Shown here piece after piece: positions 35,055 through 57,180 of a stretch of 64,000 nt of DNA. This DNA comes from Polyangia bacterium (lineage in GTDB: Bacteria; Myxococcota_A; Polyangia; Fen-1088). The position numbers and the translations under genes were made by a program. The notes below the pieces were generated by a model. The model had not been told where the DNA came from and made no database searches. It saw nothing but the letters and a program-made list of their open reading frames with translations. The stretch is from positions 1 through 64,000 of the forward strand of contig DATATI010000036.1 in NCBI GenBank assembly GCA_036268875.1, read 5' to 3'. Each line of letters begins with the position of its first letter. Position 1 is the first letter of the stretch.

Positions 35055-36362
35055 TCACGGAAGCGCGACGAAGGTGACGGCGGCGGCCTGGCTCTTGGTG
35101 CTGGTCGGGCTGCCCACCGGCGTCAGCTTGCCGCTGGTCGCGTCGACGCTGAACACCGTCACCTGTGAACCGGCCTGGTTGGCGGTGACCAGGTATTTGC
35201 CGGTCGGATCAAATGAGAACTCGCGCACGTCGCTGGTGGCGGTTCGTTGCCAGGTGGCGCCGGTTGGTTTGCCGGTGGCATCAATCGAGAAGATCCCGAT
35301 GCTGTTGTCCGATCGATTGGCGGCGTAAAGGAACTTGCCGCCAAAATCGATGTGGCCGCCGGCGCCGGCCTTGCCGCCGGCGTCCAGCGCGCTGACCACC
35401 TGCGGGTTGGCGATCTTTCCGCTGCTCGAATCGTAATCAAAATAAAAAATCTGGTCGGTGGCCTCGGTCAACACGTAAAGGTGTTTGACGGCGGCGTCGA
35501 AGGTCATGTGGCGCGGATCGGCGCCAAACATGACGGCGGCCGGGCTGTTGGCGGTCAGTTTTCCGGCGGCGAAGCTGAATTGAAGAATGCGCGGGCTGTC
35601 TTTGCCGGAATCACTCTTGCAAGCGGCCAGCAGGAATTTGCCGCTGGGATCGAACTGCACGTTGTGGGCGGAAGGGCAGCCGGGTTGACTGTCGCTGACC
35701 GCGCCCACGCTGCCGTCGCTGCTCAGGCCCAGCACGTCGACGCTGTCGCTGTCGTAATCGGCGGCGACGATCCATTTTCCGTCAGGCGAGATAGACATTT
35801 GCGCGGTGCCGGCCCCGCCGGTCTTCACGGTGTTCATCTTGGTCAGCGCGCCATTGGCGCCGACGCTGAAGGCGGTGATGGTGGCGGCGGTGGCCTCGTC
35901 GTCGACGTACAAGAACTTACCGGACGGCGACGCCACCGAGTACGTCGGGGCTGATCCCGCGGTGGCGCTGCCCATGGCGGTCAGCGCGCCGGTCCCAGTA
36001 TCAAAATGATAGATGGCGATTCCCGAGTCGTTGTAGCCCGAGACGTAAAGGAACACGTTGTTGCTCACCACCGCGCCACCGGCGCCGCCACCGTTGCTGT
36101 CCGCGCTGCCGTCATTGGCGCTGGCACCACCGCCGCCGCCATCGGTGGGCGCGGCGCCGCCGCTGCCCATGACGTTGCCGCCGGTTCCGTTGCTGCCGCC
36201 GCTGGCGTCGGCACCGCCGCTGCCGGCGTCGGCCTTACCGCCGCTGCCGGTGGCCGAGCCGCCAGCGCCGCCCGAGCCGTTCGTTGACCCACCGCCGCTT
36301 GAGCAGGCGACGCCGGCCAGGAACAACACGATGAAAGGACAACAAACGCGGAGGGTTTTCAT
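35055..36362 (-). CDS. Tethered seven-bladed beta-propeller (lactonase-like) lipoprotein
   Basis: A 435-residue lipoprotein. A signal peptide ends FLAGVACSSGGG, a Gly/Ser/Asp-rich tether runs to about residue 95, and the rest is a beta-propeller of the lactonase family (PF10282, 6-phosphogluconolactonase-like): VFLYVSGYNDSGIAIYHFDT, TYSVASPSGKFLYVDDEATA, AQMSISPDGKWIVAADYDSD, AHNVQFDPSGKFLLAACKSD and EFSFDPTGKYLVTANQAGSQ. Whether it is an enzyme or only a binding propeller is undetermined. Its export on a tether argues against a pentose-phosphate role. It is divergent from the DUF1592 gene at 36661. Confidence 0.85.
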   Translation of the reverse strand: MKTLRVCCPFIVLFLAGVACSSGGGSTNGSGGAGGSATGSGGKADAGSGGADASGGSNGTGGNVMGSGGAAPTDGGGGGASANDGSADSNGGGAGGAVVSNNVFLYVSGYNDSGIAIYHFDTGTGALTAMGSATAGSAPTYSVASPSGKFLYVDDEATAATITAFSVGANGALTKMNTVKTGGAGTAQMSISPDGKWIVAADYDSDSVDVLGLSSDGSVGAVSDSQPGCPSAHNVQFDPSGKFLLAACKSDSGKDSPRILQFSFAAGKLTANSPAAVMFGADPRHMTFDAAVKHLYVLTEATDQIFYFDYDSSSGKIANPQVVSALDAGGKAGAGGHIDFGGKFLYAANRSDNSIGIFSIDATGKPTGATWQRTATSDVREFSFDPTGKYLVTANQAGSQVTVFSVDATSGKLTPVGSPTSTKSQAAAVTFVALP

Positions 36363-36660: not shown

Positions 36661-38376
36661 ATGAGAACAGGTGCGAACTTCAGCGCCGTCGCGGCGGCCT
36701 TGGTGCTGGCCGTCGGCTGCACCGGGAGCATCGGACAGTCAGGCGATCCGGGAACCGACAACGGCACGCCCGGTAGCGGCAACGGCACGGGGAACAACAC
36801 CGGCAAGCCCGGCACCGGCACCGGCGTGGTCCCGGGAAATGCCGGCGATCCCACCGCGGCCGGGCCGATGCCGTTGCGCCGCATGACGCACGTCGAGTTC
36901 AACAACACCGTCCGCGACCTGCTCGGTGACGCCAGCAATCCGGCCAGCGCTTTCCCGCCCGATTACGATCCCGGGTTTCTGTATCCGCGGGCCCAGCTGG
37001 TGTCGCTGCAGGACGTCGACACGCTGAAGGACGCCGCATTGGCCCTGGGCAAAGGCGCCGAGAAGAACGCCGCCACGCTGGCCCCGTGCGCCGCTGGCAC
37101 CTCGGAAGACACCTGCGCCCACACCTTCATCAATACCTTCGGTCTCAAGGCCTATCGCCGTCCGGTGGCCAGCGACGAGGCGGATCGCTTGTTCGCGCTC
37201 TACACCACTGCCCGAACGACGCTGGGTTTGACCTATGCCGGCGCCATCGGCGTGTTGGTGGAGGGGATCATCCAGACGCCAACGTTCCTTTACCACTGGG
37301 AGCTCGGCAACAACGCGCCCACCATGGAAGGCAAGGTGGCGCGCCTCAATCCGTACGAGGTGGCGTCGCGGCTTTCCTATTTCATTTACAACTCGCTGCC
37401 TGACCAGGCGCTGTTTGATGCGGCGGCGGCCAATCAGCTCAGCACGCCGGCCGATCTCGAGACCCAGGCCCGCCGCATGCTGGCCGATCCGAAGGGCGCC
37501 AGCACGGTGGCCAACTTCGTCGACGCGTGGCTGACCCTCAGCGACGTGCCCAATCGCCCGAAGGATCCGAACGTCTATCCGCAGTTCAACGATGACCTGA
37601 AGGCGGCGATGATCAATGAATCGCACGCCCTGGTGGCCAGCGTCATGAAGGGCGATCAGAAGCTGTCGTCGCTGCTGACCCAGGACGTCTCGTCGGTGGA
37701 TCAGGCGCTGGCCGCTGTTTACGGCGTCAGCGGCGTCAAGGGCACCACCATGACGCCGACCACGTTGAACACCGCGCAGCGCTCGGGCCTGCTGACCCGG
37801 GCCGCCTTCCTGACCGTCACCGGCGCCACCGACGGGTCGCACCCGGTCAAGCGCGGACGGCGCGTGTACGAACGGTTCTTCTGCGGCGTGCTGCCGCCGC
37901 CCCCGAACGTCGTTCCGGCGGTGGCCACGGCGGCGTCGTCGGTGGGCAAGACCACCCGCCAGCGCTTCGAAGACCACGACAAGAACCCGTGCTCGACGGC
38001 CTGCCACAGCTTGATGGATCCGGTGGGCTTCTTCTTCGAGAACTACGACGGCATCGGCCAGTTCCGGACGATGGACAACGGTGGCGTCGTTGACGCCAGC
38101 AGCGTCATCACCATCGACGGCGCCAAGCACAACTTCAACAATGCCATCGAGCTCTCTCAGGCGCTGTCGACCAGCACCGACGTGGCCAACTGCTTCGCCA
38201 CGCAGTGGTTCCGGTTCGCCACGGACCGCACCGAGACCGACGACGATCAGGCTTCGCTGACCGCCATCGCCAGCGCCTTCAAGAAGACCAACTCGATCAC
38301 CGACGCGATGATCGGGGTGGCCACGTCACGCTCGTTCCGCTATCGGTCGCCTGCCACCGGGGAGATGCTGCAATGA
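36661..38376 (+). CDS. DUF1592-family exported lipoprotein with cytochrome-c-like motif
   Basis: A 571-residue lipoprotein: the signal peptide ends VLAVGCTGS, followed by a short Gly/Thr/Asn-rich tether. The body shows the DUF1587/1592/1588/1585 arrangement known from Planctomycetes and Myxococcota: LRRMTHVEFNNTVRDLLGD, KAYRRPVASDEADRLFALY, SRLSYFIYNSLPDQALFDAA, HPVKRGRRVYERFFCGVLPP and HSLMDPVGFFFENYDGIGQF. Most relatives have a CxxCH haem motif before MDP; here it is CSTACH (Cys444-Cys448-His449), with three residues between the cysteines. The function of the family is unknown. The TGA overlaps the DUF1552 start (ATGA), so the two are coupled. Confidence 0.85.
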   Translation: MRTGANFSAVAAALVLAVGCTGSIGQSGDPGTDNGTPGSGNGTGNNTGKPGTGTGVVPGNAGDPTAAGPMPLRRMTHVEFNNTVRDLLGDASNPASAFPPDYDPGFLYPRAQLVSLQDVDTLKDAALALGKGAEKNAATLAPCAAGTSEDTCAHTFINTFGLKAYRRPVASDEADRLFALYTTARTTLGLTYAGAIGVLVEGIIQTPTFLYHWELGNNAPTMEGKVARLNPYEVASRLSYFIYNSLPDQALFDAAAANQLSTPADLETQARRMLADPKGASTVANFVDAWLTLSDVPNRPKDPNVYPQFNDDLKAAMINESHALVASVMKGDQKLSSLLTQDVSSVDQALAAVYGVSGVKGTTMTPTTLNTAQRSGLLTRAAFLTVTGATDGSHPVKRGRRVYERFFCGVLPPPPNVVPAVATAASSVGKTTRQRFEDHDKNPCSTACHSLMDPVGFFFENYDGIGQFRTMDNGGVVDASSVITIDGAKHNFNNAIELSQALSTSTDVANCFATQWFRFATDRTETDDDQASLTAIASAFKKTNSITDAMIGVATSRSFRYRSPATGEMLQ

Positions 38377-39674
38377 ACAAAGAACGTTTCTCGCGCCGGA
38401 CGCTGCTCAAGCGAATGGGGTTGAGCGCGGCCATGCTGCCGCTGATTCACGCCGAGAAGGCCCAGGGAGCGATGCCCTCCGGCTTCCCCAAGCGCTTTGT
38501 CTCGGTCACCCACACCAACGGCGTCATCGCCAGCTCGTTCTTCCCGACGGGCGCCACCATCGGCACGCTGGGCGGCACGTTGACGACCATGCAGCCGTTC
38601 GCCGCCAAGATGATCTTCCCGATCGGCCTCAACTATCAGTCGATCATGGACGACGGGTTCAAGTACGACGGGCATTTCACCTACTGCGCGACGCTGACCG
38701 GTACCCGCGAGAAGAAATCCGAATCGCACCAGGCGCTGGCGCCGTCGATCGACCAGATGATGGCCGACGATCTGGCCATGAAAGGGGTGACGCTGAAGGC
38801 GCCGCTGCTGAATCTGGGCGTCAAGGCGACCGGCGATACCTGCTCGACGTCGTGGCGCGCCGCTGGTCAGCAGAACGCGGTCGAGCTGGACCCGACCCGT
38901 CTGTTCACCAAGCTCTTCAGCAGCGTTAACATGCCGCCCGCCCAGATGGCCATGGTCAACCTGCGCCAGCAGAGCATCCTCGATTTTTCGGCGCAGGAGC
39001 TGACGGCGTTCGGCAAGCGCCTCGGCACCGACGACAAGCTGAAGGTGCAGGCGCACCTGGAATCAGTGCGCCAGCTCGAAATGCAGATCAAGAACGCCGC
39101 CTCGGCGCCCATGGTCAGCACGGCAAACTGCACCTCTCCGATGTTAGGCGGCGGCAAGGACGCGCAAGGTCTGGCCAAGGACATGTTCGACCTGGTGGCC
39201 ATGGCCTTGAAGTGCGACGTCAGCCGGTTCGTCACCATCGACCTTTATCCGGACGGCGGCGGCGATGGAAACTCGTTCCCCTGGGTCGGCGTCAACCAGG
39301 ATTACCACGCGGTGGCGCACCAGGGCGCGTCGGGCGCCGCCAACAAGATCCTGATCGACAACTGGATCTACTCCAACGTGGCCAACCTGGCGACGCAGCT
39401 GGATGCCACCATGGAAGGCAGCGGCACCGCGCTGGACAACAGCGTGATCGCCACCTTCAGCGACATGGACGACGGAGCCGATCACCTGAACGGCAAGATC
39501 CCCATCACGTTGACCGGCAGCGCTGGCGGCTACTTCAAGACCGGCACGGTCTTCAAATACACCAACGTCGCCCACAACAAGTTGCTGACCTCGATCTGCA
39601 ACGCCATGGGCCTGACGGTGACCGGCGTGGGCGACGCGCGCTACCCGGGCAATCTTCCCGAGCTGGCGATGTGA
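38373..39674 (+). CDS. DUF1552-family protein with twin-arginine signal
   Basis: A 433-residue exported protein. The N-terminus FSRRTLLKRMGLSAAMLPLI is a twin-arginine signal, so it is folded before export and may bind a cofactor or assemble early. The body is DUF1552: FVSVTHTNGVIASSFFPTG, SHQALAPSIDQMMADDLAM, LTAFGKRLGTDDKLKVQAHL and the C-terminal ATFSDMDDGADHLNGKIPIT. DUF1552 proteins are distantly related to the DUF1501/alkaline-phosphatase-like superfamily and are regularly encoded beside DUF1592 genes, as here. No activity is known. Translation is coupled to the preceding gene by a 4-nt overlap. Confidence 0.85.
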   Translation: MNKERFSRRTLLKRMGLSAAMLPLIHAEKAQGAMPSGFPKRFVSVTHTNGVIASSFFPTGATIGTLGGTLTTMQPFAAKMIFPIGLNYQSIMDDGFKYDGHFTYCATLTGTREKKSESHQALAPSIDQMMADDLAMKGVTLKAPLLNLGVKATGDTCSTSWRAAGQQNAVELDPTRLFTKLFSSVNMPPAQMAMVNLRQQSILDFSAQELTAFGKRLGTDDKLKVQAHLESVRQLEMQIKNAASAPMVSTANCTSPMLGGGKDAQGLAKDMFDLVAMALKCDVSRFVTIDLYPDGGGDGNSFPWVGVNQDYHAVAHQGASGAANKILIDNWIYSNVANLATQLDATMEGSGTALDNSVIATFSDMDDGADHLNGKIPITLTGSAGGYFKTGTVFKYTNVAHNKLLTSICNAMGLTVTGVGDARYPGNLPELAM

Positions 39675-39709
39675 TCGCGAACCAACGAACCAAACCTGCG
39701 AGGGTCTTG

Positions 39710-40729
39710 ATGATCAGAAAAGCTGTGCCCGGGGGCCGAACGCTGCTGGTGTGCCTGGCGCTGGTAGCGCTAGGCTGCGGTCCGTCGAACAGCGGCAACG
39801 ATCCGGGGAACGGAGGCGGCAGCGGCGGCGCGCCGGGCGGTGGAACGGGCGGCGCGACGGTGGGCGGTGGCAGCGGCGGGTCGTCCAGTAGTAGCGGCAG
39901 CGGCGGATCGACCGACAATGGCAGCGGCGGCACCACCATCAGCGGCAGCGGCGGTTCGATCGCCACCACCGGCAGCGGCGGCGCGTCGATGGGGACCGGC
40001 GGCGCCGCCACGAACAACGACGGCGGAGCCACCGACGCCCCGGCCAGCAGCAGCCCTGGCTGCACCGGCCTGCAGGGCGCGACCTTCTGCGAAGACTTCG
40101 ACAAGCAGACGGCGGGACAGAAGCCGGCCGGCATGTACAAGGTCAGCGGCGCCATGGTGATCGATTCGACCAAGGCGTACAGCGGCAAGAACTCCGCGTA
40201 CATTCACCTGAACAACCCGAAGGATGACTCGGTGGCTTCGCAGATGACCTTCAGCGGCGCGCCATTGTTTCCCGCGCTGGCCAGCGACATCTTCGCTCGT
40301 GCGATGGTCTACATCACCGCCGTGCCGGGCTGCTGTTCGACGTCGAACGGCATCCACTGGGATCTGTCGACGGCGAAAGCGGGCGGCACCGAATACACCT
40401 TGGGCAGCATGTACGGCAACTTCATGCCGGTGTATCAACCGGGCGACGATTCGGTCGATACCAAGACCAAATGGCCCGAGGCGAAATGGGTCTGCATCCA
40501 GTGGGAGTTCAGCGGCAGCATGAACTATCTGGACGTGAAGGTGGACGGCGTGCGGGCGGCGCCCGGCATCCCGGTCACCAAGTGGAAGCCGGCGACGTGG
40601 ACTTCGATCAACATGGGCTGGATCAACTTTCAGCAGTCGACCATCCCGGTCGACATGTGGATCGACGACCTGGCCTTCGGCAGCAAGGAAATTCCCTGCC
40701 CGACCGGCCCCAGCGCCGCCGGACCGTAG
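39710..40729 (+). CDS. Tethered lipoprotein with beta-sandwich-like domain
   Basis: A 339-residue lipoprotein. The signal peptide ends LALVALGCGPSN, a tether of about 90 residues rich in Gly/Ser follows, and the C-terminal domain begins CTGLQGATFCEDFDKQTAGQ. Strands such as SGKNSAYIHLNNPKDDSVAS, IFARAMVYITAVPGCCSTSN, WVCIQWEFSGSMNYLDVKVD and the closing PVDMWIDDLAFGSKEIPC resemble concanavalin-like or Cip1-like carbohydrate-active beta-sandwiches; this is pattern recognition and the exact family is uncertain. It lies 35 bp downstream of the DUF1552 gene, so it is probably in the same transcript. GAGGG precedes the ATG. Confidence 0.65.
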   Translation: MIRKAVPGGRTLLVCLALVALGCGPSNSGNDPGNGGGSGGAPGGGTGGATVGGGSGGSSSSSGSGGSTDNGSGGTTISGSGGSIATTGSGGASMGTGGAATNNDGGATDAPASSSPGCTGLQGATFCEDFDKQTAGQKPAGMYKVSGAMVIDSTKAYSGKNSAYIHLNNPKDDSVASQMTFSGAPLFPALASDIFARAMVYITAVPGCCSTSNGIHWDLSTAKAGGTEYTLGSMYGNFMPVYQPGDDSVDTKTKWPEAKWVCIQWEFSGSMNYLDVKVDGVRAAPGIPVTKWKPATWTSINMGWINFQQSTIPVDMWIDDLAFGSKEIPCPTGPSAAGP

Positions 40730-40749
40730 ACGCGGCGGCGCGCGCCGGA

Positions 40750-41778
40750 GTGACGGCGGCGCGCCGGTGGCGCGCGGTCCTGGCATTGTTTGGCGCGGCC
40801 TTGGTGGCGGGCTGCCAGATGGATGGCAGCGGCCTTGCTGTCGACGCTCAAGTGTCGATCGACGCCGTTGATGCGGTCAACGCTGACACTGACGTTGCCC
40901 ATGCCGCCGTCGATGCAGCCGCTGCGACCGGCGATGCCGCTTGCACGGTGGTGCCGCCGCTCAGCCACTGGGCGACCTGGCCGATGCCTGACTCGACGGC
41001 GGTGGCCGGCGCGGTGACCACGCCCAGCTACGATCTCGACACACCGGGCGTGGTGGGCGATCGAATCACGCACCTGCAATGGCAGCGCGCCGTCGACGAG
41101 GCCTCGGACACCTGGTATCAGGCGATGAACCACTGTGCCTGCTTGACGTTGGGCGGGCAGACCGACTGGCGGCTACCCACGCGCATCGAATTGGTGTCGC
41201 TGGTCGACGTCACCCGGCAATCACCGTCCATTGATCCGACGGCGTTTCCCGACACACCCAGCGAGTGGTTCTGGACCTCGTCGCCGGCGGCGGACGATTC
41301 CACCGCGGCCTGGTACGTGGCCTTCTTCGACGGAGACACGCACCACCAGGACGTCACCATGCCTTACCGCGTTCGCTGTGTGCGCACCGACGCGACCACC
41401 GTGCCCGACCCACGCCTGACCGTATTCGGCGACGGCATCGCCAGCGACAACGCCACCGGCTTGACCTGGCAAACCGCGTCCGATCCGACCCTGCTGACCT
41501 GGGAGGACGCCGCCGCGGCGTGCGCTGCGCTGCCCGCGGCGGCCGGTTCGGCGGCCTGGCGGCTGCCGCGCGCCAAGGAGCTGGAAACGCTGATCGACGA
41601 GACGCGCTTTGACCCAGCCATCGACGAGACGATCTTTCCCGGCACCGGCAGCGATTCGTTCTGGGCCTCGTCGCCGCTGGCCGGCCAGGCTGGATTCGCC
41701 TGGTTCGTCAGCTTCGCCGCCGGCGTCGCCTACAACAGCCCGACCGCGGAACCGCACCGCGTTCGCTGTGTCCACTGA
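40750..41778 (+). CDS. DUF1566 (Lcl C-terminal-like) lipoprotein, duplicated domain
   Basis: A 342-residue lipoprotein. The signal peptide ends AALVAGCQMDGS, followed by an Asp/Ala/Val-rich tether (about residues 30-65). Two DUF1566 modules follow: one with TDWRLPTRIELVSLVDVTRQ and FWTSSPAADDSTAAWYVAFF, ending YRVRCVR, the second with AAWRLPRAKELETLIDETRF and FWASSPLAGQAGFAWFVSF, ending HRVRCVH. DUF1566 resembles a C-type-lectin/formylglycine-enzyme-like fold and is found in adhesion or collagen-binding proteins. The GTG start at 40750 lacks a good ribosome-binding site. It follows the previous lipoprotein gene by 20 bp and may end the operon begun at 36661. Confidence 0.8.
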   Translation: MTAARRWRAVLALFGAALVAGCQMDGSGLAVDAQVSIDAVDAVNADTDVAHAAVDAAAATGDAACTVVPPLSHWATWPMPDSTAVAGAVTTPSYDLDTPGVVGDRITHLQWQRAVDEASDTWYQAMNHCACLTLGGQTDWRLPTRIELVSLVDVTRQSPSIDPTAFPDTPSEWFWTSSPAADDSTAAWYVAFFDGDTHHQDVTMPYRVRCVRTDATTVPDPRLTVFGDGIASDNATGLTWQTASDPTLLTWEDAAAACAALPAAAGSAAWRLPRAKELETLIDETRFDPAIDETIFPGTGSDSFWASSPLAGQAGFAWFVSFAAGVAYNSPTAEPHRVRCVH

Positions 41779-41819
41779 CCGGCGCGCGGCGGCCGGGCGC
41801 GGTTGGTGGGGGCCGGCGA

Positions 41820-42703
41820 AAGGCGAGCGAACGCCGGTGGGCTTGCCACCGGGGGCGTCGGCATAGACGTTGGCGCTGGCCCTGGTGGTGCCAGGAGCGT
41901 CGCGGTCGCGCGAGAAACCTTGCTCGGCGACGATCGCGCGGTAGCCACGATCCAAATCCAGGGCGCGCGCCGCGCTGGGCACCAGCAGCGTGGCCACGTC
42001 TTTGTGCAAGGCTGCCACCGCGCCCTGGCGCAGGCGGCCCGCGCCGTCGAAGAACCGCGCCTGCGCTTCCTTGTTTTCGCGGAAATCGTCGGCGGCGCCG
42101 TTTTCGCGCAGGTAGGTCGTGTATTCGTATTCGCCGTCGGCGCGGCGTGGTTCAGGCAGGCCACGCAGATCGTGTTGCGTCCAGTGGAGCCAGCCGCGCG
42201 CCGGCGCGCTGGCGGGCAGCTTGTGCGCGAACGAGAAGATGCCGTCGGTAGTGGCGCCGATGCCGCCGTGGCAACCGGCGCAGGCCACGGTCTCTTCGTA
42301 CGACTGCGGGCGCAGCGATCCGTCGGCCGCTTCGACGAAGCCCTGGAAGTACCAGCCGTGCTTGTTGGTGATGCCGTGGTCGTTCTGCCACAGCCCCTCG
42401 CGGGCGCCGGTGGTTGATTCGGTGGTCTCGACGGCGTCGGCGGCGGCGGACGCTTTCAGATCGGCTCTGGGGGAAGGTCGGCACGGCGGGACGGCCGACA
42501 GCGCCCGGGCCGGTGATGGTGTAGCTGACCGAATCCAAGTTGATGCCGGGATGCAGCTGCAGCTGGGCGCCGATGCTGCCGGCGACGTCGCTCGTGTCCT
42601 GGACGGTGTGGTCAGCGCACCCGCCCAAACCGGCGGACGCAAGCAAGGCCGCGGTCATCGCGGCGGGGAAAGCAAATGGGGAACGAAGGGAGACTCTCTT
42701 CAC
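41820..42703 (-). pseudogene. Decayed fusion: lipoprotein N-terminus plus cytochrome-like C-terminus
   Basis: A normal start at 42703 gives a signal peptide with lipobox (ASAGLGGCADHT) and the start of a beta-domain (LDSVSYTITGPG), but this frame becomes meaningless from about 42510. From about 42470 a different frame carries well-formed sequence: LWQNDHGITNKHGWYFQGFV, then YEETVACAGCHGGIGATTDG with a CxxCH motif, and DGEYEYTTYLRENGAADDF, continuing to NVYADAPGGKPTGV near 41830. No stop follows in that frame until 41221, deep inside the opposite-strand DUF1566 gene. A deletion that joined two genes out of frame, with loss of the 3' end, explains this best. Confidence 0.65.
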
Positions 42704-54960: not shown

Positions 54961-57180
54961 ATGAGCGAGCGCAAACGGGTGCTGAGCGGCCAGGGCGCAA
55001 CAAATCACCGTCGGTGGGTGAAGATTGCGCTCGTCGCCTGCGGCGCGTTCGGTTGTTCCGGTAACGTTGGCAGCGGCAACGGAGCGCCGATGTCCGGCAG
55101 CGGCAACAGCGGTGGCGGTGGCAACAGTGGCGGCGGTGGCTCCGGGACGGTGATGGTGACGCCGCCGTCGGCCGAATTTCAGCCCGCGCCGGCCGGCATC
55201 CGCCGCCTCACGACGGTGCAGTATCGCCACACAATTTCCGATCTTTTCGCGGGATCCGTGACTGTCACGGATGATCTGGACGACGACACCTCTCTCAGCG
55301 GCTTCGCCTCGATCGGCGCCGCGCGCATCAGCCTGTCGCCGGTGAACGTCGAGCAGTTCGAGACCGCCGCGCTGGACATCGCGCACAAGGCGCTGACCGA
55401 CGCCACCGCGCGCGCCGCCTTCGTTGGTTGCAATCCGACCACCGCCACCAGCGACGCTTGCACGCAGGCGTTCTTCAAGAAATTTGGCCGCCGCGCCTGG
55501 CGCCGCCCGTTGGCCGACGACGAGGTTGCCACTTACACGATGTTGACCAATGGCATACAAACCTCAATGAAGAGTTTCTTTGGTGGTTTGGAATATGGAA
55601 TTGCTGCTCTCTTACAGTCACCCCATTTTCTTTATCGAGAAGAATGGGGCACGCCGGTGTCCGGTAAACCGTCCCAGCTGGCCTTCAACGACTACGAACT
55701 GGCCACGCGACTGTCGTACTTTTTGTGGAACACCACGCCCGACGACCTGCTGCTGGACGCCGCCGACGCCAAGCAATTGACCGGCAAAGGCTTCGCCGCG
55801 CAGGTGGCGCGCTTGCTCAAGGATCCTCGCGCCGCCAACGGCATCCAGACCTTCTTCACCGAGTACTATCGCCTGGCCGAGCTGGACAACCTGCCGCAGC
55901 TTCCATCGGCGTTCCCGCAGCGCACCGCCACGCTGGGTCCGTCGATGCGCGAGGAGACGCAGCGGTTCCTGGCTGATCTGACGGTCACCCGCGACGGCGA
56001 CTTCCGAGACGTGTTCGACTCGACCACCACCTTCGTCAATTCAGAGCTGGCCAGTCTCTATGGTTTGCCGGCGGTCAGCGGCACGGACTTCGCCAAGGTC
56101 ACGCTGCCGGCCACCGGCATGCGGGCCGGTTACCTGGGGCAGGGCAGCTTCCTGGCGTTGAACGCCCACTCGAACATCACCTCGCCCACCTATCGCGGCA
56201 AGTTCATCCGCGAGATGTTGATGTGTCAGTCGGTGCCGCCCCCGCCCATGAACGTGCCGCCTCTGCCGATGGACACCGGCCCGGCGACGCAGACCATGCG
56301 GCAGAAGCTGGAGATCCACCGTCAGATGGAGCCGTGCAAGAGCTGCCACGCCTTCATGGATCCGCTGGGCCTGTCGTTCGAAAACTTCGACGGCATCGGT
56401 GCCTTCCGCACCAAGGACGCGGGCCAGGCCATCGACGTCACCGGCGACCTGGACGGCAAGGCCTTCAACGGCCCGATCGAGCTGGCCAAGCTGCTCAAGC
56501 AAAGCCCCGACGTGCTGACCTGCGTGGCCCGCAACCTTTATCGATACGTCACCGGCCACATCGAGAACGACGGCGAAGAGCCGGCCATCACTCAACTGTC
56601 CAAGGGCTTCAGCGACGGTCAATATCACTTCAGCGCGCTGGTGAACGGCATGGTCAGCAGCCCCGCCTTTGCCTATGCCGGGCCCCAGTCGAATGATCCC
56701 TTGCCGACGGGCGCCGGCGGCGCCAATGGTGCCGGCGGGATGGGTGGCAGCAGCGGAACGGATGCGGGGATGGTCGACACCGGACCGCCCCCGCCGCCGC
56801 CCACGGACGGTGGCACGGTGCCCACCGGTCCGCTCAGCTTCGCCCAGCACATCGCTCCGATCATCGCCAACAAGTGCTCGCCCTGTCACACCACGCAGGC
56901 GATGGCCGGCTTGAACTTCACCTACGCCAACCTGGTGACCAACGCGGCCGTCACCAACGACGTCACCAAGGCGTGCGACTTCCTGAACCTCTCGGCGCCG
57001 AAGCGCGTGGTCGCCGGCGATGCCTACCACAGCTTGTTGTGGGTGAAGATCTCCAGCGACAACGTCGCCCTGGCCGCCCATTTCTGCGGCGTTCACATGC
57101 CCAAGGATCCGACGAAGATCCTGACCACCGTCGAGCTGGACACGATCGAACACTGGATCCGCGACGGCGCGAAGCCGTAG
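54961..57180 (+). CDS. DUF1592-family lipoprotein fused to a C-terminal cytochrome-c-like domain
   Basis: A 739-residue lipoprotein. The signal peptide ends ACGAFGCSGNVG, with a short Gly/Ser/Asn tether. The DUF1587/1592/1588/1585 core follows: IRRLTTVQYRHTISDLFAG, RRAWRRPLADDEVATYTML, TRLSYFLWNTTPDDLLLDAA, YRGKFIREMLMCQSVPPPP and CKSCHAFMDPLGLSFENFDG, with a canonical CxxCH at Cys459-His463. After a Gly/Pro-rich linker (about 600-625) a separate domain has IIANKCSPCHTTQAMAGLNF (Cys639-His643) and ends VELDTIEHWIRDGAKP, typical of mono-haem cytochrome-c-like domains. The ATG at 54961 follows GGAGG; the frame is open to 54838. Residues around 195-230 are encoded by a tract of strikingly low GC. 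Confidence 0.85.
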   Translation: MSERKRVLSGQGATNHRRWVKIALVACGAFGCSGNVGSGNGAPMSGSGNSGGGGNSGGGGSGTVMVTPPSAEFQPAPAGIRRLTTVQYRHTISDLFAGSVTVTDDLDDDTSLSGFASIGAARISLSPVNVEQFETAALDIAHKALTDATARAAFVGCNPTTATSDACTQAFFKKFGRRAWRRPLADDEVATYTMLTNGIQTSMKSFFGGLEYGIAALLQSPHFLYREEWGTPVSGKPSQLAFNDYELATRLSYFLWNTTPDDLLLDAADAKQLTGKGFAAQVARLLKDPRAANGIQTFFTEYYRLAELDNLPQLPSAFPQRTATLGPSMREETQRFLADLTVTRDGDFRDVFDSTTTFVNSELASLYGLPAVSGTDFAKVTLPATGMRAGYLGQGSFLALNAHSNITSPTYRGKFIREMLMCQSVPPPPMNVPPLPMDTGPATQTMRQKLEIHRQMEPCKSCHAFMDPLGLSFENFDGIGAFRTKDAGQAIDVTGDLDGKAFNGPIELAKLLKQSPDVLTCVARNLYRYVTGHIENDGEEPAITQLSKGFSDGQYHFSALVNGMVSSPAFAYAGPQSNDPLPTGAGGANGAGGMGGSSGTDAGMVDTGPPPPPPTDGGTVPTGPLSFAQHIAPIIANKCSPCHTTQAMAGLNFTYANLVTNAAVTNDVTKACDFLNLSAPKRVVAGDAYHSLLWVKISSDNVALAAHFCGVHMPKDPTKILTTVELDTIEHWIRDGAKP

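What the first reader, a model, noticed from the sequence alone, without database searches (positions are those of the whole stretch)
36661..41778. Possible exported module: DUF1592 + DUF1552 + two tethered lipoproteins
Seen: four collinear genes with gaps of -4, 35 and 20 bp encode a Sec-type lipoprotein (DUF1592, haem-like Cys/His motif), a twin-arginine protein (DUF1552), a tethered beta-sandwich-like lipoprotein and a doubled DUF1566 lipoprotein. Known: DUF1592 and DUF1552 genes are frequent neighbours in Planctomycetes and Myxococcota but no biochemical role is established. Inference: use of both export routes plus carbohydrate-type domains suggests a surface or periplasmic redox or glycan-processing complex. 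A second DUF1592/DUF1552 set in the same window strengthens the link.
Basis: partly seen in the sequence, partly recalled or inferred. Interest (0 to 1): 0.62.

Follow-up and report, generated by a model that had tools for sequence, protein, structure and literature searches.

The report
Duplicated two-gene export system with lipoproteins
The four genes are real and look like one operon: a much-duplicated, functionally uncharacterised pair of exported proteins (DUF1592 with DUF1552) followed by two lipoproteins that resemble carbohydrate-binding modules, so it most likely acts on polysaccharides outside the cell.

Summary
Gene 1 carries the full PSD3-PSD5-PSD4-PSCyt3-PSD2 (DUF1592-type) architecture, gene 2 is DUF1552, gene 3 belongs to a Cip1/polysaccharide-lyase-like jelly-roll family, gene 4 has two Lcl_C (DUF1566) domains. 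The genome (Myxococcota) holds about 34 copies of each DUF; 32 adjacent pairs were found and their distances mirror each other (r = 0.88; shuffles at most 0.20), so the pair is the functional unit. The two lipoproteins are not fixed partners, but each recurs beside other pairs in other genera. The next co-directional gene after a pair is a lipoprotein in 12/27 cases against 70/423 other neighbours (p = 0.001). The DUF1552 model resembles the alkaline-phosphatase/sulfatase superfamily but lacks the sulfatase formylglycine motif. The confident DUF1592 model matches nothing in the PDB. Gene 1 belongs to a clade with CX3CH instead of CX2CH at the haem-type motif. Best reading: an exported polysaccharide-acting unit with interchangeable binding lipoproteins. 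The pair was already known; the partner swapping and the CX3CH clade look new. Catalysis and haem binding are untested.

The parts
36661..38376 (+). P1: DUF1592-type lipoprotein, 571 aa, PSD3-PSD5-PSD4-PSCyt3-PSD2, with CX3CH motif (CSTACH) at residues 444-449
   Evidence: Pfam hits over cut-off; lipobox ending at Cys 20; motif table; AF2 mean pLDDT 94
38373..39674 (+). P2: DUF1552 (HXXSHH) protein, 433 aa, N-terminal twin-arginine motif (FSRRTLLKR)
   Evidence: PF07586 8.6e-49; 4-bp overlap with P1; AF2 model resembles the alkaline phosphatase/sulfatase superfamily
39710..40729 (+). P3: lipoprotein with Gly/Ser-rich tether and a Cip1/PL20-like jelly-roll domain, 339 aa
   Evidence: family alignment; homologues hit PF21340 over cut-off; lipobox
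40750..41778 (+). P4: lipoprotein with two Lcl_C (DUF1566) domains, GTG start, 342 aa
   Evidence: PF07603 1.8e-62, two stretches; lipobox VAGC
35055..36362 (-). Divergent neighbour: lactonase-type seven-bladed propeller lipoprotein, possibly related in function
   Evidence: PF10282 2.1e-66; 298 bp upstream of P1 on the other strand; a lactonase also lies next to a DUF1592 gene in L051/L069
53399..54778 (-). Second DUF1552 protein, paralogous pair
   Evidence: PF07586 6.4e-60
54961..57180 (+). Second DUF1592 protein, canonical CX2CH, with an extra C-terminal CSPCH segment
   Evidence: Pfam; motifs CKSCH and CSPCH

Best explanation
The operon makes one member of a large family of exported two-protein units that act on an extracellular polysaccharide or similar glycan. 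P1 (DUF1592) is a lipid-anchored helical protein with an invariant CXnCH site, probably a covalently bound c-type haem and so an electron-transfer or oxidative partner. P2 (DUF1552) is exported folded through Tat and has an alkaline-phosphatase/sulfatase-like fold with conserved His/Asp residues, probably a metal-dependent hydrolase or transferase lacking the sulfatase formylglycine. P3 and P4 are lipid-tethered binding modules (Cip1-like jelly roll and Lcl_C lectin-like pair) that hold the unit to its substrate; related operons swap them for other propeller or carbohydrate modules. Shown: gene content, co-inheritance of P1 and P2, recurrence and enrichment of lipoprotein partners, fold resemblance of P2, CX3CH clade. 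Inferred: haem, metal, catalysis, substrate, surface location, physical complex.
For: The DUF families are matched 34 times each in the 6.15-Mb genome; 32 adjacent pairs, 13 with a 4-bp overlap; mirror-tree r = 0.88 for 31 pairs, shuffle maximum 0.20. Next co-directional gene is a lipoprotein in 12/27 against 70/423 (p = 0.001). Partner families: Vgb propeller, whose 4 full-length copies in the genome all lie directly 3' of DUF1552; RCC1 propeller followed by a P3-like lipoprotein in three loci of one related genus; GH99-like, PA14, GDSL and PQQ proteins; Lcl_C, 12 of 28 genes within 5 kb of a pair (binomial 6e-7 at an 8% background). P2 model against sulfatases: Foldseek E 1.7e-5, probability 1.0. 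Conserved H101, S/T125, D127, R285, H312, H316, D355, H371. Invariant C, C and H of the CXnCH motif in 55 homologues; System I and II cytochrome c assembly genes present. Literature: carbohydrate-binding modules fused to PSCyt genes in Verrucomicrobia (PMC5615132); sulfated-glycan binding by Lcl (PMC11162425).
Against: TM-scores of the P2 model to known sulfatases are low (0.32-0.39 by query length among the best matches) and the formylglycine motif is absent in all 53 homologues, so catalysis is not implied. The P1 model has no match to any cytochrome, and CX3CH is not the standard haem motif. About two thirds of pairs in this genome have no recognised carbohydrate partner next door. P3 proximity within its own genome is only weakly above chance (p about 0.016). 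The export predictor and gene calls were simple scripts.
Confidence: 0.45

Rival explanations
1. The unit builds or modifies the cell's own surface polysaccharide or envelope instead of attacking an external one; the lipoproteins organise the cell surface.
For: DUF1501/DUF1800, an analogous exported pair with the same gene order, is co-transferred with bacterial chitin synthase genes (PMC5122149). The alkaline-phosphatase superfamily matches include the envelope transferases LtaP and BcsG.
Against: No glycan synthase stands beside the window operon, and the partners include GH99-like and lyase-like families. Sequence homology of DUF1552 to DUF1501 is not established once the Tat signal is removed (E 1e-5 becomes 0.06).
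Confidence: 0.22
2. The CXnCH site is not haem but a structural disulfide or a zinc or iron site; the unit is not redox-active.
For: The P1 model matches no cytochrome c. CX3CH is one residue longer than the haem motif in 24 of 116 homologues. Further invariant cysteines 408 and 511 could pair.
Against: Two Cys and the His are invariant in 55 of 55, 92 of 116 keep canonical CX2CH, and a paralogue in the window carries a second CXXCH.
Confidence: 0.3
3. Only P1-P2 is a functional unit; P3 and P4 are chance neighbours in a lipoprotein-rich genome.
For: About 20 P3-type genes exist in the genome and most lie away from pairs. Most pairs lack P3 and P4.
Against: P3-like genes follow the pair in related loci L044, L045 and L046 and in the more distant L132; Lcl_C follows the pair in the window, L028 and L150, or follows P2-P1 in L159-L162 and L100. 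Lipoprotein enrichment p = 0.001.
Confidence: 0.2

Closest known systems
PSCyt3/PSD group of planctomycete-specific domains (DUF1587/1595/1592/1588/1585)
   Same: P1 has all five domains in this order; He et al. 2017 (PMC5615132) describe PSCyt3 genes with a conserved unknown neighbour and, for some PSCyt genes, fused carbohydrate-binding modules
   Different: Myxococcota, about 34 copies, CX3CH motif, and carbohydrate-type modules encoded in separate lipoprotein genes instead of fused
DUF1552 (HXXSHH, PF07586)
   Same: P2 matches nearly the full profile
DUF1800-DUF1501 gene pair
   Same: same two-gene order and Tat-like N-terminus on the second protein; weak in-register C-terminal match of DUF1800 to DUF1592 proteins
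   Different: the DUF1800 frames examined have no CXXCH; homology is weak (DUF1592/1800 E 0.001; DUF1552/1501 not significant without the signal peptide)
Lcl C-terminal domain (DUF1566), Legionella collagen-like adhesin
   Same: P4 has two such domains; Lcl binds sulfated glycosaminoglycans (PMC11162425)
   Different: no collagen region; tandem domains on a lipoprotein; binding not shown
Cip1-like / PL20-like jelly rolls (PF21340, PF14099)
   Same: P3 homologues and positional equivalents hit these families over cut-off
   Different: the window protein itself has no Pfam hit; catalytic residues not tested

Membership tests
DUF1592-type PSD/PSCyt3 protein | five PSD/PSCyt3 domains over curated cut-offs | tested here: met
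DUF1592-type PSD/PSCyt3 protein | canonical CX2CH haem motif in PSCyt3 (usual, not part of the Pfam definition) | tested here: not met
   CSTACH is CX3CH; 14 of 55 and 24 of 116 homologues share this
c-type cytochrome | covalently bound haem | not testable with these tools
   no fold match to solved cytochromes
DUF1552 | PF07586 over cut-off | tested here: met
   167 bits against 30
alkaline phosphatase/sulfatase superfamily | superfamily fold | tested here: inconclusive
   Foldseek E 1.7e-5, probability 1.0, but TM 0.32-0.39 among the best matches
type I sulfatase | C/S-x-P-x-R formylglycine motif | tested here: not met
   0 of 53 homologues
Lcl_C/DUF1566 | PF07603 over cut-off, twice | tested here: met
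Cip1-like/PL20 jelly roll | profile match of the protein itself | tested here: inconclusive
   window protein no hit; homologues L016 and L132 over cut-off for PF21340
DUF1800-DUF1501 pair relation | homology of both partners | tested here: inconclusive

The most novel reading that the evidence does not exclude
DUF1592-DUF1552 is an undescribed class of two-component extracellular glycan enzyme: a haem protein of a fold not yet solved, one branch of which attaches haem through CX3CH, works with an alkaline-phosphatase-like Tat protein that lacks formylglycine, and substrate choice is set by swapping the lipoprotein encoded next door. Its massive duplication would then reflect many substrates.
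Probability: 0.2. Interest if true: 0.8.

Novelty: new variant of a known kind. Interest (0 to 1): 0.5.

Why it matters
Families DUF1592 and DUF1552 have no established biochemistry, yet this genome keeps about 34 co-inherited pairs. Showing that pairs travel as units, that their neighbour lipoproteins are interchangeable carbohydrate-type modules, and that P2 resembles sulfatase/phosphatase enzymes turns an old unknown into testable hypotheses: bind-and-process assays with P3/P4, haem and metal assays on P1/P2. The CX3CH clade gives a natural test of how strict c-type haem attachment is.

Tried and rejected
PDB sequence searches with P2, P3 and profiles of P1 and P2 gave only marginal chance hits. 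Foldseek with the P1 model found nothing. DUF1552-DUF1501 homology was lost when the Tat signal was removed. A link between CX3CH and directly downstream Lcl_C looked complete, but L150 is CX2CH. A single origin of CX3CH held on 55 rows but needs 4 changes on 116. The second set in the window as special support was rejected because of the 34 copies. No paper names both DUFs; the CXXXCH paper was not informative.

Full report
Observation. P1 has the complete PSD3-PSD5-PSD4-PSCyt3-PSD2 set, P2 is DUF1552, P4 has two Lcl_C domains, P3 has no Pfam hit. P3 belongs to a family whose other members reach the Pfam cut-off for the Cip1-like polysaccharide-lyase jelly roll (L016 3.3e-8, L132 3.8e-8); in G002 the gene after the pair is a PF14099 polysaccharide-lyase-type protein. 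Export signals: lipobox in P1, P3 and P4, twin-arginine in P2; in the genome 29 of 34 P1 and 29 of 34 P2 proteins show these by simple patterns. That the four are one transcript is inferred from spacing and was not tested.

Genome context. The genome has 6.15 Mb and 34 matches to each of PSCyt3 and DUF1552. Of the copies recovered with flanks, 32 are adjacent pairs, 28 in the order P1-P2, 3 reversed and 1 divergent, 13 with a 4-bp overlap. Distance matrices of P1 and P2 over 31 pairs correlate at r = 0.88, while 2000 permutations reach at most 0.20, and nearest neighbours agree in 22 of 31. The pair duplicates and evolves as a unit.

Partners. P3-type genes: about 20 in the genome, 2 adjacent to pairs (window; L016 with order P3-P1-P2-propeller) and 3 more within 5.5 kb, only weakly above chance (p 0.016). 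But in a related genus three loci (L044, L045, L046) have P1-P2-RCC1 propeller-P3-like, and L132, from another Myxococcales MAG, has P1-P2-P3-like. Lcl_C: 12 of 28 genes in eight genomes lie within 5 kb of a pair (my tally; some contigs are too short to tell); at an 8% background the binomial probability is 6e-7, at 12% 4e-5. Directly 3' positions are the window, L028, L150, and after reversed P2-P1 pairs L159-L162 and L100. A Vgb-lyase-type propeller occurs as four full-length copies in the genome, all four directly 3' of DUF1552. Other next genes: GH99-like, GDSL, PQQ repeat, PA14, PSI. Overall 12 of 27 next co-directional genes are lipoproteins against 70 of 423 other neighbours (Fisher p 0.001; any export signal 15/27 against 151/423, p 0.03). 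These loci share ancestry, so the p-values are optimistic. Most pairs still have no recognised carbohydrate partner. Fused carbohydrate-binding modules on PSCyt genes in Verrucomicrobia, including PA14 and Laminin_G_3, are reported in PMC5615132, which is the same kind of association in fused form.

Structure. The P2 model (pLDDT 85.6) finds sulfatases and other alkaline-phosphatase superfamily members (best E 1.7e-5, probability 1.0, TM 0.32-0.39 in the top matches). No formylglycine motif in 53 homologues; G50 is invariant, position 125 is always Ser or Thr, and H101, D127, D204, R285, H312, H316, D355, H371 are at 90% or more. Which of these is catalytic is inference. The P1 model (pLDDT 94, pTM 0.92) has no PDB match. 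Cysteines 408 and 511 are invariant beside the CXnCH motif.

CX3CH. P1 carries CSTACH. On 55 homologues the 14 CX3CH rows form one side of a branch (SH-aLRT 86). On 116 homologues there are 24 CX3CH rows and the tree needs at least 4 changes (FastTree), with further CX3CH rows in Sorangium/Polyangium. The genome has CcmF/NrfE-type, CcmC-type and CcsB-type assembly genes. Whether haem is attached is unknown.

Related pair. DUF1800-DUF1501 pairs in other Myxococcota share gene order and a Tat-like N-terminus on the second protein. The DUF1800 profile weakly hits the C-terminal part of the window's second DUF1592 protein (E 0.076) and of the C74 copy (E 5e-5), and hhalign gives E 0.0012 in register. 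DUF1552-DUF1501 gives E 1e-5 with the Tat signal and 0.06 without. I leave homology open.

Judgement. The pair and its domains are known and uncharacterised. A glycan-acting role is the best-supported reading at moderate confidence; redox chemistry is plausible but unproven.

Noticed in passing
54961-57180: The second DUF1592 protein has a C-terminal extension with an extra CSPCH motif, like a fused small cytochrome domain; a paralogue in L007 has it too.
   Followed up: partly
35055-36362: Lactonase-type propeller lipoprotein divergent from P1; a lactonase also stands beside a DUF1592 gene in L051.
   Followed up: partly
L027:11305-14500: A pair of a divergent P1-like protein (CLYCH, no Pfam hit) and a weak DUF1501-like protein, possibly a bridge between the two pair types.
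   Followed up: partly
L051:9720-11683: A sigma-factor-like protein (judged by eye only) and a weak FecR-domain protein stand directly upstream of a DUF1592 gene, suggesting envelope-signal control.
   Followed up: no
41221-42703: Just downstream on the minus strand a possible lipoprotein start (MKRVSLRSPFAF...GGC) and a CAGCH-containing stretch lie in two different frames, so a cytochrome-like gene there appears frameshifted.
   Followed up: no
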